From: Methylorubrum sp. B1-46
GTDB taxonomy: Bacteria > Pseudomonadota > Alphaproteobacteria > Rhizobiales > Beijerinckiaceae
Assembly (NCBI RefSeq): GCF_021117295.1
Contig: NZ_CP088247.1
Location: 124,001 to 188,000, forward strand
Reading direction: 5' to 3'
Length of the DNA: 64,000 nucleotides
Below, in pieces: positions 31,844 through 59,720 of the stretch. Under the pieces are notes generated by a model that had not been told where the DNA came from, did not search any database, and saw only the letters and a list, made by a program, of their open reading frames with translations. Every line of letters begins with the position of its first letter. Position 1 is the stretch's first letter. Position numbers and translations under genes: made by a program.

Positions 31844-32054
31844 TGCGGTCGCAGACAGCGTCTTGATATCGGCATGACGCGTCGGGGGCTACGGTCCCCG
31901 ACCACCCGTGTTGGTTTGGGGGCTCTAGATGTTTGGTCCCGCTGTGTGGTGGTACGACTGATGCTGCTTGGAGGTCGCGCTATGGGACAGGTTCTCCACC
32001 ACACCACCACGACGACTGAGACGGTCCGTCGTGCAGTCCAAGCTCGTCAAGAGT

Positions 32055-32270
32055 GCGAACGCGAGCTTCCTTGTTCGCCTTGATCTTGCCGATGCGACCC
32101 ATGCCGCCACAGTGCGGGCAAACTGGACCCTGCGGCCACAGCGTCTCCTCAAGCTAATCGAACGCGGCTTCTTCGCAGTGAAACTGAGGATGGCTGAGAA
32201 CGGACATAGCTCGGGCTTCGACGATCAAGCTGTACCGCGAGAGCGCCGGGTTTGCAGCTACATAATCGCC
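32055..32270 (-). pseudogene. IS1595-type element, truncated left end
   Basis: The first 216 bases of an element closely related to the transposon at 54623-57997: its terminal repeat ends at 32270 (read inward GGCGATTATGTAGCTGCAAACC), followed by the transposase start ATG 32205-32207 with SVLSHPQFHCEEAAFD, a TAG at 32154-32156 (normally W), then LEETLWPQGPVCPHCGG and KANKEARVR, where homology ends. Zinc-ribbon first half only. Non-functional relic. Confidence 0.75.
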
Positions 32271-54614: not shown

Positions 54615-54622
54615 TTCGCTTT
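54615..54622. repeat. Left copy of 8-bp target duplication
   Basis: TTCGCTTT at 54615-54622 is repeated exactly at 57998-58005, immediately outside both terminal repeats of the IS1595-type transposon. An 8-bp duplication is characteristic of IS1595 elements. Confidence 0.85.
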
Positions 54623-54689
54623 GGCGATCATGTAGTTCGCAAACCGGCGCCGTTTGCGCTACGGGTCTCCTTCCTTGGGGAAGGCTTTG

Positions 54690-55116
54690 ATGGTGCCCCG
54701 GTTTGGGCTGGTGCTGCTTGCTGGTGTAATCGCGCTGGGCGTTTGCTCGTCGAGCGGTCCCGATTGTTCGGCAGAGAATGTTATCTCGACGGTCAAGAAA
54801 ATTGATCGGCAAAAGATCGCAACTCATCCGGGGCTCATCTACGTATTCGATTTCGAAGCAAGTCGATACGAAGTGAATGCTATCCGAACTCGGCCCAAGG
54901 CTCCAAGCAGTGCACTTGCGCGGCAGAATTTCGCTTTGTGCCGGAGTTAACTAAAGCATTGCGGGACGGTCGCGCGAGCGACCCGGAGATGTTCCAATCG
55001 CTTATCACGAACATTATAGGGAGGCTTAGACTAAAGAGCTAAATGCCCCTATCGAGCACAAGGCAGAAAAGACTGATAAAGGCGATGACGGATATGTCAC
55101 CGTGAAGGGTCTATAG
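54690..55116 (+). pseudogene. Lipoprotein-like hypothetical, frameshifted
   Basis: From ATG 54690 (GGGGAAGG upstream): VPRFGLVLLAGVIALGVCSSS looks like a lipoprotein signal with lipobox LGVC, then ENVISTVKKIDRQKIATHPGLIY. Near 54900 the plausible reading moves to another frame (CAAEFRFVPELTKALRDG, ASDPEMFQSLITNI), then again after a stop (ELNAPIEHKAEKTDKGDDGY) to 55116. No family known. Confidence 0.45.
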
Positions 55117-55355
55117 GAACCAGACGCCAAGCGACGGTTCTTCGATGACGGTAATGGCTCCGCGTCAGAAGTATTTGGCGGAGCTTTCGCTAGCTTCCTC
55201 ACCCGTTCCGCGAACCGCTCGGGATCGTCATCGGTCCCGAGTTGCTGAGCTGCTTTGATGAAGCGCTCGGATTGGGAGAGACCATCGTCTGCTCTAGAGT
55301 TCTGAGCTCTTCCAATTCGGGGCCGCTCTTCCGTTGTAGGAGGCGCTTTTTTCAT
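55026..55355 (-). CDS. Small charged partner of the Schlafen-like gene
   Basis: 109 aa from ATG 55355. Core: GLSQSERFIKAAQQLGTDDD, then PERFAERVRKLAKAPP, a helical pattern seen in small proteins of mobile elements (SERFIxxAxxLGxDxxxxxFxxxLxxIA). The C-terminal 30 residues overlap the plus-strand remnant and may be read-through. Fifteen bases separate it from the end of the 55371-56924 gene, so the two form an operon. Confidence 0.55.
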   Translation of the reverse strand: MKKAPPTTEERPRIGRAQNSRADDGLSQSERFIKAAQQLGTDDDPERFAERVRKLAKAPPNTSDAEPLPSSKNRRLASGSYRPFTVTYPSSPLSVFSALCSIGAFSSLV

Positions 55356-55370
55356 CGCTCGGCCTGTCCA

Positions 55371-56924
55371 TCACGAAAAGACATTATTGATGGCGTAGTG
55401 GGCCTTAGGGTCTCTTTGAAATTCGCCCTGAACGAAGATAAGAACGCCCTTTCTGGCGAGCCTTTCTAGATCTTTCTTGCTTGTACTCCAAGTCCTGCCA
55501 GTTAGACGTTGTGCCTCAGATACTTGAATTGTTTTGTTGCGAAAAGCGTAGGCTGCAATCTTTATCTCGTGCTCTTGCAAAGATTTCCAAAGCTCGACAC
55601 CGAAAAACTGAGCGACGTCTCTGTCAGTAGATCTCTTGCGAGTCTCGTGATCGTTCCGCAGTGTTACGCGAACAACAACACCATAGATCGCCTCTTGCTT
55701 GAACTGCGGGTCAGGAAGCCCCCAATCCTGCATGCTCTCCCGTATGCGCCGCGTTCCCTCACGTGCCATAAGAACATAGCCGAGATAGCGAAGTGCATCC
55801 ATCGTGTGATGGTTTCGGGATGCACGAGTTTTATAAATTGTATTCTCGTTGACCGGAGGAACGAAGCCGCCGGGGCTTTCGATTTCCAGTCTTTCAGGAA
55901 AGAACTTTATAGTGATTTCCGTTCCGCTGAAGCTATATGATCGATGGACACAAGCGTTGATCAGCGCCTCGTGCCATGCCCATTTAGGATACTCAGGCGT
56001 TGTAACGAATTTACCGTCTTTATTCAGCCACGTTACATCGTAATTTAGATCTTCAATCAATTCCGTTGAGCCAGCGATAATATTAACGAGATTTCCTTCA
56101 ATGAATTTATCTCTTATAGGACTGTACGTATTTCCCGTCCCCTCGTGATCCGTAGCAAATCGCTGAATGCGAACCCTACATCCGGGAATGGTTTTGAGAG
56201 GGTCCTTCGCGGCGAGAAGAACTAGGCTATTCAGAGGAGCGACACTCTTGCCGTCGCTTGACACTAGATGGCGATCAAGCAAAATCTCTTCGTTCGTCCA
56301 ATTTTTACGCCCCTCCCTTTCGCGGAATTTGTCACAGAAATCATTGATGATTTTGAGATCGAATTCATCGGGGTATTTGTAGGGTGCCTTCTCCATCTCG
56401 AAGGATAGCTCCTGGCGCGTCGCCCGAAAATCTCGCCTTTCCTCGTCGCTCATCTTATGACGAGAGTCTCCATACCTAATCCAAGCTTCACCCTTATTCG
56501 TTTCCACAAGCTTGCCCACGTACGGAATATATATCGCTATACAATAATCCTCAGATCCTTCGATCACGACAGGCACGATTTTGACTTCGGGCTTGGCTTG
56601 AGGGCACATTTTTGTATGACACTGCTCAAGCCTGTTTCTGAGATTTATTCCAGCGGCTGCGCAGCCCGTAGCTTCGCCCTTTGAGGTGGCGCCGAAAACG
56701 ATCGTGCCGCCGTCGGGAGTGTTGGAGAACGCACTTAGGTAAGTTGTGAAGTCGTCGAAATGAACTTTTTCGGCGCGCTTGTATTCGATCCGCCGATCCT
56801 CGCCGAGAAAGCTCATCAGGCGCTGACTCAGCCGAACCCAGATGTCCCGTGGCGTCCAGAGTAGCGGGTTTTCTCCCATCTGATATGGGGTATCAAATGG
56901 GAGATCGAGTTGGCCGTCAGTCAC
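55371..56924 (-). CDS. Schlafen/AlbA_2 and HATPase-domain protein (COG2865-like)
   Basis: 517 aa. Residues about 40-170 form an AlbA_2/Schlafen fold (DRRIEYKRAEKVHFDDFTTY, FSNTPDGGTIVFGATSKGE); about 310-400 a HATPase_c_4-type domain (WAWHEALINACVHRSYSFSG, ERLEIESPGGFVPPVNE); a C-terminal winged helix follows (KTIQVSEAQRLTGRTWSTSKKDLERL). Such proteins bind nucleic acid and are annotated as regulators or RecG-like; members occur in mobile and defence loci. GTG start 56924 with a weak site. Reading is intact and AT-rich; it is the main transposon cargo. Confidence 0.8.
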   Translation of the reverse strand: MTDGQLDLPFDTPYQMGENPLLWTPRDIWVRLSQRLMSFLGEDRRIEYKRAEKVHFDDFTTYLSAFSNTPDGGTIVFGATSKGEATGCAAAGINLRNRLEQCHTKMCPQAKPEVKIVPVVIEGSEDYCIAIYIPYVGKLVETNKGEAWIRYGDSRHKMSDEERRDFRATRQELSFEMEKAPYKYPDEFDLKIINDFCDKFREREGRKNWTNEEILLDRHLVSSDGKSVAPLNSLVLLAAKDPLKTIPGCRVRIQRFATDHEGTGNTYSPIRDKFIEGNLVNIIAGSTELIEDLNYDVTWLNKDGKFVTTPEYPKWAWHEALINACVHRSYSFSGTEITIKFFPERLEIESPGGFVPPVNENTIYKTRASRNHHTMDALRYLGYVLMAREGTRRIRESMQDWGLPDPQFKQEAIYGVVVRVTLRNDHETRKRSTDRDVAQFFGVELWKSLQEHEIKIAAYAFRNKTIQVSEAQRLTGRTWSTSKKDLERLARKGVLIFVQGEFQRDPKAHYAINNVFS

Positions 56925-56944
56925 GCTTTCACATCATATAGTAG

Positions 56945-56994
56945 GTCGAGCTAGGCTCGACACGCTATAGGTGGGGTGTCGAGCCTAGCTCGAC
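56945..56994. terminator. 19-bp inverted repeat between transposase and cargo
   Basis: GTCGAGCTAGGCTCGACAC (56945-56963) and its exact complement (56976-56994) flank a 12-base loop. The transposase stop codon (56985-56987) lies inside the right arm and the cargo gene starts 21 bases beyond the left arm. Probably stops transposase read-through into the cargo; an operator role is also possible. Confidence 0.55.
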
Positions 56995-57933
56995 ACCCGG
57001 CTCATCGCTTGCGGCGCACCAGGCCGTTGATACGTCAGGCGCTTACCCACGCCGCCGCTCAAGGCCCGCGTTGCCCGCTCCACATCACACACACCAAGCT
57101 TCACCCAGTTGTTATACCGAAAGTCGAACTCAGCGAGATAGCGGTGCAGGTGCTGCTTACCGCAGTGCTGATAGACGGCCTTCATGCCGCGCTTGAAGAC
57201 GGAGAAGTAGCCCTCGACGGTGTTCGTGTGGACGATGCCGCGCACGTACTCCTTGGCGGAATGCGTCGTCATCTGATGGTCCACGAACGTTCTGATGGTC
57301 CACGAACGTGGTGCCGATTTTCGCGTAGATGGCGGACTCGTCAGTGTGCAGCGTCGCTTCCTTGACGATGTTCTCTTCGATGATCGGGTGGATCGTCTCG
57401 GGCTTGAGTTCGTCCACGACGAGGACGACCTTCATCCTGTGATGAAAGGCACGCTTCTTCGGCTTGCCGGGCTCGCGAACAATGAAGGTCTCATCGGCTT
57501 CCACGATGCCGCCAGCGCCGGGAATGCCGCCAACGCCACCGAACGGGGCCAGAGCGCCTTCGCGCAGCGCCTCACGGATGCGGTGGGCCAGGAACCACGC
57601 GGTCTTGTACTGAACCACTAGGACGCGGTGCAGCTGGTGCGCGCTGATGCCCTTCTTAGAAGAGCACATCAGATGCACGGCTTGCAGCATCTTATGCAGC
57701 GGCACGCGGGCATGCTCGAACACGGTGCCAACCTTGACCGTGAACTGCTTCTTGCAGTCGCCGCACTTGTGGAGGCCCATGCGAACGCGGGCTTCCTTAT
57801 TCGCCTTGATCTTGCCGATCCGGCCCATGCCGCCGCAGTGCGGGCACACCGGACCCTGCGGCCACAGCGTCTTCTCAAGCCAGTCGAACGCGGCTTCCTC
57901 GCAATGAAACTGGGGCTGGCTGAGAACGGACAC
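56985..57933 (-). pseudogene. IS1595-family transposase broken by a 19-bp duplication
   Basis: Zinc-ribbon N-terminus VCPHCGGMGRIGKI...KCGDCKKQFTVK, then the DDE core: GIVEADETFI (first D), TLHTDESAIYAKIG (second D) and, in the other frame, VHTNTVEGYFSVFKRGMKAVY (N/E). The frame breaks at a tandem duplication at 57272-57309. GTG 57931-57933 matches the start of the relic copy at 32207. Inactive unless the duplication is an assembly error. Confidence 0.85.
57272..57309. repeat. 19-bp tandem duplication in the transposase gene
   Basis: TCTGATGGTCCACGAACGT occurs twice in a row (57272-57290, 57291-57309). Nineteen is not a multiple of three, so it alone causes the frameshift; removing one copy joins the FVDHQMTTHSAKEYVRG reading. 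Confidence 0.9.
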
Positions 57934-57997
57934 AGCTCGGGCTCCGACGCTCAAGCCGTACCGCGAGACCGTCGGGTTTGCAAGCTACATAATCGCC

Positions 57998-58005
57998 TTC
58001 GCTTT
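57998..58005. repeat. Right copy of 8-bp target duplication
   Basis: TTCGCTTT, identical to 54615-54622. Removing the transposon and one copy gives an uninterrupted CGCC-TTCGCTTT-GGACC join. Confidence 0.85.
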
Positions 58006-58171: not shown

Positions 58172-58303
58172 CTACGGCGGCCAAGTAGTTGCACGCCTAG
58201 AGATCATGACGTCCTCGACGTGGCGATAGCGGGCCAGCTGCTCGCGCAGACCGCGCACCTCGGTCCGGAGAGCGGCGTTGTGCTGCTAGAGCTGTTCCCG
58301 GTC
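58172..58303 (-). pseudogene. Coiled-coil protein fragment
   Basis: Minus strand: DREQL, stop, QHNAALRTEVRGLREQLARYRHVEDVMIS, a leucine-rich helical tail to a stop at 58172-58174. Resembles the end of small DUF6262/TnpC-like mobile-element proteins but is too short to assign. Cut at its 5' end by the IS630 element. Confidence 0.3.
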
Positions 58304-59263
58304 AGGTAGCGACGGCCAAGTCGTTCTCGTAGCCGGCCGCGGCGATGTAGTTGCGGCACTCCTGCGGAGTGAAGCGCGTGAAGGCTTGGCGGATGGCCAC
58401 CCAGAGATCCGGGATCGTGCGGGCTGCCGCGCTGCGTAGCAGAGTCTTCAGCTTCGCGAAGGCCTGCTCGATCGGGTTGAAATCAGGACTGTAGGACGGG
58501 AGGTAGAGCAGCCGCGCTCCTGCGGCCTCGATCGCGTCCTGTACGCCGGCGACCTTGTGGGCTGGCAGGTTATCCATGACGACGATGTCGCCCGGCTGCA
58601 GCACCGGGATCAGGGTCTCGGTGACGTAGCTGCAAAAGCGCCTGCCGTTCGTGGGACCGTCCAGCAGCGCGGTGGCGCACAGCCCGCTGGTGCGCAGGGC
58701 GGCGGTGATGGTGGTGGTTTTGTAGTGACCCAACGGGGCTGCAAGCCGGCAGCGCTCGCCGCGTGGTGCCCAGCCGTAGCGGCGCGCCATGTTGGTGGCC
58801 GCCGCCGTCTCGTCCAAGAACACCAGCCGATCCGGATCGAGTTCGGGCTGGGCCTCGAACCACGCCTCGCGGGCCGCTCTTACGTCCGCACGCTCCTGCT
58901 CAGCTGCGTACGTCGCCCCTTTTTCCAGCTGATCCCGTGGCGGGCAAAGAAGCGCGACAGGCCGCTCGTGCTGGTCTGGACGCCCTGCTCAGCCAGCCGG
59001 TCGCGAAGCTCGCGCAGGAAAAGACGCGGCTCCTGCTCGGAGGTCTCCAGGATCAGCGCGGCATGAGCCTCAATGCGCTTCGAGGTGTGATCGCCGCCCA
59101 TCGGCTTGGAGGCGAGTTGGCCCTCGTGGCGGAAGCGCTCCGACCAGCGGCTGGCACTCGACAAGCTGACCCCGAAGCGGGCTGCGGCGCGATGGCAGGA
59201 GACGCCCGCCATCACGGCAGCCACGACACGCTCGCGCAGGTCCACAGACAGCGGTGAAGGCAT
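58302..59263 (-). CDS. IS630-family transposase (two overlapping frames)
   Basis: OrfA from ATG 59263 (AAAGGAG 7 bases upstream): DLRERVVAAVMAGVSCHRAAA, RFGVSLSSASRWSERFR and GLSRFFARHGISWKKG, stop at 58880. OrfB continues in the -1 frame from the AAAAAGGGG run near 58917-58925 with AAEQERADVRAAREAWFEAQ, FLDETAAATNMARRYGWAPRG (first D), VVMDNLPAHKV (second D) and SPDFNPIEQAFAKLK (E), stop at 58302. IS630 elements can fuse such frames by frameshifting; a fixed mutation is the alternative. Confidence 0.8.
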
Positions 59264-59720
59264 GAGCAAGCTCCTTTACTCACCAACGCGCTACCCGCTA
59301 ACCCGTCTCAAGCGGCGCGGGACCGGCTCTAGGTATGATCGACGATAGGTGATTGACAGTTAGCCCACCGCATCGTTCGGCGGCTGGAGGCTGATTGCCG
59401 AAGCCCAGCGCGCGGCTTCAAGGGGGCCGCTCGTGAGACCGATGCTAGCTAGACAGGGCAGCCTTCGATAAAGCCCTGATGCGGAATGCGAAGCCACCTG
59501 CCGAAAGAGGGAGGGCGCGCAACCATATCGATGGACGCGCCCCAAGGTGGTTCCCGGTCTCGGGGAAGGAACTGCGGCTCCTATAGACGATCCAGGCTCA
59601 CAGAGGCGTGACTCTCCAGCCACAATCCACGCGGAGAGACTGTCATTTGAATGTCATGATAGACTAGGCTGTCGAAGAACCTCGTGCCGCTGAGGTGGCG
59701 CAAGGGGCAACAGGTGTGAC
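59264..59720. other. No gene recognised
   Basis: 457 bases that include the right end of the IS630 element. Open frames here lack family features. No repeat longer than about 10 bases was noticed. Confidence 0.45.

What the first reader, a model, noticed from the sequence alone, without database searches (positions are those of the whole stretch)
54615..58005. 3.4-kb IS1595-type transposon with exact 8-bp target duplication and foreign cargo
The sequence shows imperfect terminal repeats (20 of 23 identical), flanking TTCGCTTT on both sides, an IS1595 transposase and AT-rich cargo. IS1595 elements are known to duplicate 8 bp, and some subgroups carry passengers. The combination with a Schlafen/AlbA_2-HATPase cargo may be an undescribed element.
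Basis: partly seen in the sequence, partly recalled or inferred. Interest (0 to 1): 0.82.

Follow-up and report, generated by a model that had tools for sequence, protein, structure and literature searches.

The report
Jumping gene carrying phage-defence-like cargo
A 3.4-kb bacterial jumping gene carries a nuclease-like gene of the kind found in virus defence, and it belongs to a widespread group of such elements that pair their transposase with one conserved tiny gene and swap the cargo around it.

Summary
Window 54623-57997 (3375 bp) is flanked by TTCGCTTT on both sides, with inverted ends matching at 20 of 23 positions. It carries an IS1595-family transposase, broken here by a 19-bp tandem duplication (57272-57309), and an AT-rich Schlafen AlbA_2/HATPase gene.

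The 109-aa ORF at 55026-55355 belongs to an unnamed small-protein family that accompanies this transposase lineage. Of 80 named genome loci fetched by transposase alone, 63 have it downstream on the same strand, 8 more have a divergent version by eye, and 5 of the other 9 have under 1.5 kb of sequence there. 60 of 80 show inverted ends plus an exact 8-bp target duplication (control 0 of 80).

Around these two genes sits exchangeable cargo: DUF3800, PIN/VapC, AlbA_2, restriction-type and toxin-antitoxin-type genes and, in three elements, both genes of PD-Lambda-5.

IS1595 elements with passenger genes ("transporter IS") have been known since 2009. The conserved second gene and the defence-like cargo appeared in none of the paper listings seen, but ISfinder could not be consulted. 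No empty site was found. Verdict: a new variant of a known kind.

The parts
54615..54622 (.). left copy of the 8-bp target duplication TTCGCTTT
   Evidence: sequence
54623..54645 (+). left terminal inverted repeat (small-gene side), 20 of 23 identical to the right end
54654..54950 (+). 98-aa ORF in cargo slot B (between left end and small gene); no Pfam or NCBIfam match, possibly a decayed gene
55026..55355 (-). conserved small companion gene; profile-matching core 55164-55355, C-terminal tail of the ORF unlike the relatives aligned
55371..56924 (-). cargo gene, 517 aa: SLFN_AlbA_2 + HATPase_c_4, intact reading frame
56945..56994 (.). perfect 19-bp inverted repeat (12-bp loop) between transposase end and cargo start; terminator- or operator-like (inferred)
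56985..57284 (-). C-terminal piece of the IS1595 transposase (holds the last residue of the DDE triad, by motif from recall), out of frame with the N-terminal piece
57272..57309 (.). exact 19-bp tandem duplication that breaks the transposase frame
57157..57954 (-). N-terminal piece of the IS1595 transposase (zinc ribbon and first part of the DDE domain)
57975..57997 (-). right terminal inverted repeat (transposase side)
57998..58005 (.). right copy of the 8-bp target duplication TTCGCTTT
   Evidence: sequence

Best explanation
This is one copy of an IS1595-family transposon lineage ('transporter IS') built as: left end, cargo slot B, small gene, cargo slot A, transposase, right end. The zinc-ribbon/DDE transposase acts on about 24-bp inverted ends (consensus GGCGATTATATACTTGACAAACCC) and inserts into mostly AT-rich 8-bp targets, which are duplicated (shown by sequence; the strand-transfer chemistry is inferred from the family). 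The small protein is a core part of the element rather than of the cargo, and most likely assists or regulates transposition (inferred). The cargo is exchangeable and rich in defence-like and toxin-antitoxin-like genes. In the window it is a Schlafen-type AlbA_2 protein with a GHKL-like ATPase domain, probably a stress- or phage-triggered RNA/DNA-acting effector (inferred). The transposase of this copy is frame-broken, so the copy is probably fixed in place unless helped in trans (inferred).
For: Window anatomy. Ends plus exact 8-bp duplication in 41 of 56 first-set elements and 60 of 80 named loci, control 0 of 80. The 101 duplications (7 loci counted twice) are 74% A+T. Small gene: in 111 genus genomes 25 of 50 hits lie within 10 kb of an IS1595 transposase, all 25 downstream on the same strand; 22 of 26 among hits over 60 bits. 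In 80 named loci, 63 downstream on the same strand, 1 of them also upstream, 1 locus with a hit anywhere on the opposite strand; the same with the profile built before these loci were seen; 8 more by eye. Slot-A cargo faces either way (14 elements opposite, 20 same as the transposase) while the small gene keeps the transposase strand. dN/dS of the small gene: median 0.23 over 253 non-independent pairs, all under 1. Cargo families. PD-Lambda-5 in three elements.
Against: No empty site for the window copy. The window transposase is broken. 15 of 56 first-set elements and 20 of 80 named loci gave no accepted ends. 25 of 50 genus small-gene hits, mostly weak, are not near a transposase hit. L137, L138, L142 and L166 have room but no small gene found. 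The small protein's role is untested: two helices at mean pLDDT 71, no PDB match. PADLOC family counts do not separate cargo (34 families) from flanking genes (42) at 1e-10; most shown for the flanks are helicase-type models. Most cargo ORFs match no Pfam family: about 35 matches in all for 98 ORFs. 8 of 9 viral-contig relatives of this cargo lack the transposase nearby.
Confidence: 0.8

Rival explanations
1. An already catalogued IS1595 'transporter IS' (for example the ISNha5 subgroup); the small gene and passenger diversity may already be noted in ISfinder, so only the cargo is local news.
For: Transporter IS of the IS1595 family with passenger genes, and ISNha5 with a transcription regulator, are stated in passages of PMC8496243 and PMC11891212, both citing Siguier 2009.
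Against: None of the papers listed by eight literature searches (some lists capped) is, by title and start of abstract, about a conserved small gene of IS1595 elements. Of the 120 listed relatives of the small protein, those with a source name are nearly all 'hypothetical' (one is called diphthamide synthase). ISfinder and the 2009 paper could not be read.
Confidence: 0.3
2. The small gene belongs to the cargo (for example the antitoxin or third part of the PIN modules), not to the transposon.
For: It overlaps or abuts the upstream cargo gene in several elements and is annotated beside VapC in pMOC1.
Against: It stays with the transposase whatever the cargo, keeps the transposase strand when slot-A cargo is opposite (14 elements), and sits directly after the transposase in some elements.
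Confidence: 0.12
3. A dead relic: the AlbA_2 gene was trapped by a transposon that no longer moves, and the arrangement has no present function.
For: Broken transposase; truncated related end at 32054-32270; slot-B ORF without a family.
Against: Exact target duplication kept; cargo frame intact with conserved AlbA_2 residues.
Confidence: 0.35

Closest known systems
IS1595 family insertion sequences
   Same: zinc-ribbon plus DDE_Tnp_IS1595 transposase, inverted ends, 8-bp duplication
   Different: members are described as having a single transposase gene (PMC8101967 passage); here a second conserved gene and cargo lie inside the ends
Transporter IS (tIS), e.g. ISNha5 of the IS1595 family
   Same: passenger genes between IS ends of the same family
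   Different: the ISNha5 passenger is given as a transcription regulator (PMC11891212 passage); here cargo is swapped between elements and is defence- or toxin-like, with a constant small gene. Sequence relation to ISNha5 untested
PD-Lambda-5 anti-phage system (cargo of sister elements, not of the window)
   Same: L040, L068 and L166 hold both genes, best E 3.1e-191 (A) and 8.8e-120 (B)
   Different: described as a compacted prophage version of an RM+Abi system (PMC9519451 passage); here it is in transposons
Schlafen-type AlbA_2 proteins / COG2865-like ATP-binding proteins (COG name recalled)
   Same: AlbA_2 and HATPase_c_4 domains; the model aligns to 3lmm over most of its length and to Schlafen N-terminal domains (7fex, 9jr9, 7cux)
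   Different: the fit to 3lmm, an uncharacterised protein, is loose (TM 0.38 and 0.40 for chain A); no function is shown for either

Membership tests
IS1595 family | N-terminal zinc ribbon Zn_ribbon_IS1595 | tested here: met
   2.5e-11, over the curated cut-off
IS1595 family | DDE_Tnp_IS1595 / NF033547 transposase domain | tested here: met
   N-terminal piece 103 bits (cut-off 75); C-terminal piece 59 bits; split by a frame break
IS1595 family | 8-bp target duplication next to inverted ends | tested here: met
   relatives
IS1595 family | single transposase gene as only content | tested here: not met
   this excludes a plain IS, not a passenger-bearing member
transporter IS (IS1595 type) | passenger gene unrelated to transposition inside IS ends | tested here: met
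ISNha5 / ISNwi1 subgroups | transposase and ends cluster with the type elements | not testable with these tools
   ISfinder not available; the closest plasmid relatives listed bear only the family name
composite transposon | cargo between two IS copies | tested here: not met
   one transposase, one pair of ends at this place
Schlafen-type AlbA_2 effector | AlbA_2 domain with conserved acidic residues | tested here: met
   (E42, R45, K49 invariant in 25 sequences); nuclease activity not tested
anti-phage defence system (window cargo) | protection against phage | not tested
   PADLOC gives partial matches to pAgo and Aga models only

The most novel reading that the evidence does not exclude
A previously unnamed class of two-gene IS1595 transposons, spread through Alphaproteobacteria, whose conserved small protein is a dedicated transposition or cargo-acquisition factor and whose interchangeable slots distribute compact anti-phage and toxin-antitoxin systems, including families (DUF3800, paired PIN proteins, AlbA_2) whose defence role here is still to be tested.
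Probability: 0.45. Interest if true: 0.78.

Novelty: new variant of a known kind. Interest (0 to 1): 0.62.

Why it matters
If right, small single-transposase elements, and not only islands, prophages and plasmids, shuttle compact defence modules between alphaproteobacteria. The constant small gene and 24-bp ends then give a search handle for new defence candidates: whatever sits between them is suspect. The role of a conserved 60-aa companion of a DDE transposase is a directly testable question.

Tried and rejected
Empty site: joined flanks searched in 111 genus genomes; only the own genome matched both halves. Cargo in other genomes: protein search of 367 class genomes at E<=1e-60 found only the own genome, so close relatives of the cargo are rare in that sample. 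PADLOC as a measure of enrichment: rejected as a clean contrast because flanking genes matched as many families. PDB fold search of the small protein: no match; profile hits to lysyl-tRNA ligase at E 0.46 or worse are taken as chance. Order-level adjacency was read only by eye because the transposase list was cut, so it is not counted; one case that looked opposite (G361:C44) proved to be a 7.1-kb element whose own transposase lies on the same strand (L090). Dropped before counts: chance-like end candidates of L049, L060 and L089 by the distance rule; for L067 the second candidate was taken; L061 and L062 were kept by hand. The control for one search used 98 of the 100 flanking ORFs.
Full report
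Observation. The element of 3375 bp (54623-57997), its 23-bp ends (20 of 23 identical) and the flanking TTCGCTTT are in the sequence. The own genome holds one full copy and a 217-bp fragment of the transposase end at window 32054-32270, 90% identical. The transposase lies in two pieces on the minus strand, with Zn_ribbon_IS1595 and DDE_Tnp_IS1595. An exact 19-bp tandem duplication at 57272-57309 breaks the frame between them. The cargo of 517 aa matches SLFN_AlbA_2 and HATPase_c_4. The interior is about 0.46-0.53 G+C against about 0.65 outside.

A lineage, not a single oddity. A DNA search of 111 genomes of the genus (Methylobacterium/Methylorubrum by the names) found matches in 33. Several loci matched the transposase and, at variable distance, a short stretch inside the 109-aa ORF at 55026-55355. 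Wider loci showed elements with matching ends and 8-bp duplications but different contents: for example L033 (4234 bp, AAACATTT), L034 (3816 bp, AAATGATT), L037 (2701 bp, ATTCGTTT) and L038 (3557 bp, AAATATTT).

The small gene. A profile of the ORF (A2) found 50 hits in 34 of 111 genus genomes; the IS1595 family model gave 61 hits in 41 of 111. 25 of 50 small hits lie within 10 kb of a transposase hit, all downstream on the same strand; above 60 bits it is 22 of 26. Of 18 transposase hits of 159.9 bits or more, 16 have the small gene by this measure; of 22 hits of 128-154 bits, mostly a second IS1595 subgroup, none has. 16 loci from outside the lineage, mostly of that second subgroup, also gave no ends by the same kind of search and only weak small-profile hits of 14 bits or less. 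The protein search returned 1207 relatives; the 120 listed bear no Pfam domain, and those with names are nearly all 'hypothetical protein'. In a tree of 142 transposases those 16 did not fall inside the lineage, though the rooting gave no usable support value. Codon comparison gave a median dN/dS of 0.23 over 253 pairs among 93 genes, all below 1; the pairs are not independent. The prediction is two helices with mean pLDDT 71, without a PDB match.

Test on loci chosen by transposase alone. 63 of 80 have the small gene downstream on the same strand; one of these also has a hit upstream, and one locus has a hit somewhere on the opposite strand. The profile made before these loci were seen gives the same 63. 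60 of 80 have inverted ends with an exact 8-bp duplication, control 0 of 80. 8 of these 80 repeat first-set loci; without them it is 55 of 72 and 53 of 72. Of the 17 without a profile hit, 8 (L117, L118, L124, L136, L143, L148, L159, L161) have an ORF of about 50-63 aa with a similar motif at the transposase stop, judged by eye; 5 (L108, L140, L144, L147, L162) have less than 1.5 kb of sequence on that side; L137, L138, L142 and L166 showed none. In 80 viral contigs the figures are 45 (small gene) and 31 (ends), control 0.

Ends and targets. Over 101 end pairs (7 loci counted twice) both ends share the consensus GGCGATTATATACTTGACAAACCC; the duplications are 74% A+T. The first set, which was picked by DNA or small-gene similarity, gave 41 accepted of 56 elements. 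In 13 of 56 elements a hairpin with arms of 9 bp or more lies within 200 bp of the transposase end, against 2 of 56 shuffled; the window's, with 19-bp arms, is the second longest after L041 (22 bp).

Cargo. First set, 110 ORFs from 56 elements (all scanned, spurious ORFs included): DUF3800 16, PIN 8, SLFN_AlbA_2 4 and HATPase_c_4 4, Peptidase_M78 2, MethyltransfD12 2, P63C 2, DUF1829 2, single FRG, Beta_protein, HigB, NYN, GIY-YIG and Cas2-like hits, and further hits such as acetyltransferase domains, HTH domains and two nested IS1595 transposases. Second set, 98 ORFs from 53 elements: 11 families in all, DUF3800 15, PIN 8, SocA_Panacea 3, NYN 2, and single RelA_SpoT, MethyltransfD12, GmrSD_N, DUF1828, DUF433, DUF5343 and a coiled coil; most ORFs match nothing. 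98 flanking ORFs of the same loci gave 123 families, the 25 shown being of housekeeping or phage (terminase) type; DUF3800 and PIN are not among the 13 families with two or more members. The control ORFs are longer on average, so this is not length-matched. PADLOC at 1e-10 listed 34 families for cargo and 42 for flanks, so that library gives no clean contrast. Specific and strong are both genes of PD-Lambda-5 in L040, L068 and L166; L068 and L166 have ends with exact duplications, L040 has none found. PMC9519451 (passages read) reports phage protection by PD-Lambda-5.

The window's cargo. 613 relatives among the candidates scored; the cargo of L034 and L043 aligns over full length at 36-37% to the window's, and in L041 two adjoining ORFs are the likely counterpart of the fourth pair of domain hits. 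In Azospirillum brasilense p1 a 39% relative follows a transposase C-terminal fragment. Of 9 viral-contig relatives 8 have no such transposase within the flanks held (at most 4 kb); one inspected neighbourhood (L262) has a primase-like gene (recalled resemblance). E42, R45 and K49 of the AlbA_2 domain are invariant in 25 sequences. The model (mean pLDDT 81, pTM 0.50) resembles 3lmm, an uncharacterised protein, and Schlafen N-terminal domains. That this makes it a nucleic-acid-acting effector is inference.

A named, annotated example. Methylobacterium oryzae CBMB20 plasmid pMOC1 holds transposase, hypothetical protein, VapC-family toxin and a 62-aa hypothetical protein matching the small profile, within ends 3413 bp apart and an exact AATCGGAA duplication. 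Pseudosulfitobacter plasmid P1 has an 1869-bp form with the small gene and a 33-residue cargo remnant, duplication 7 of 8; Sulfitobacter guttiformis pSD118 has ends but no duplication.

Known or new. IS1595 elements with 8-bp duplications and a single transposase gene are described in PMC8101967 (passages); transporter IS of this family in PMC8496243 (passages) and ISNha5 with a regulator passenger in PMC11891212 (passage). Passages of PMC10667641 and PMC3281130 added nothing on passengers of this family. Siguier 2009 and ISfinder were not read. The searches listed no paper that, by title and start of abstract, is about the conserved small gene or about defence cargo of IS1595 elements; apart from the passages named I saw listings and starts of abstracts only, some lists being capped.

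Noticed in passing
window 32054-32270: Truncated right end of a sister element: inverted end plus transposase N-terminus (82% aa, 90% nt), no partner end found in the window.
   Followed up: partly
window 58302-58823 and 58880-59269: Two ORFs just right of the element look like a split IS630-type transposase (recalled resemblance, not scanned).
   Followed up: no
window 56945-56994: Perfect 19-bp inverted repeat between transposase end and cargo start; hairpins at this place are commoner than in shuffles (13 of 56 against 2 of 56).
   Followed up: partly
L090 5514-12613: A 7.1-kb element with exact duplication that contains two further IS1595 transposases, a nested arrangement.
   Followed up: no
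L261 4432-6300: Pseudosulfitobacter plasmid element reduced to transposase, small gene and a 33-residue remnant of the same type of cargo: cargo loss within intact ends.
   Followed up: partly
L262-L269: Relatives of the AlbA_2/HATPase cargo in viral contigs, without the transposon in the flanks held; L262 lies beside a primase-like gene.
   Followed up: partly
L172 7083-8222: Cargo matching PADLOC candidate PDC-S33 (E 4e-99), RelA/SpoT-like by sequence, inside ends with exact duplication TAACGAAA.
   Followed up: partly
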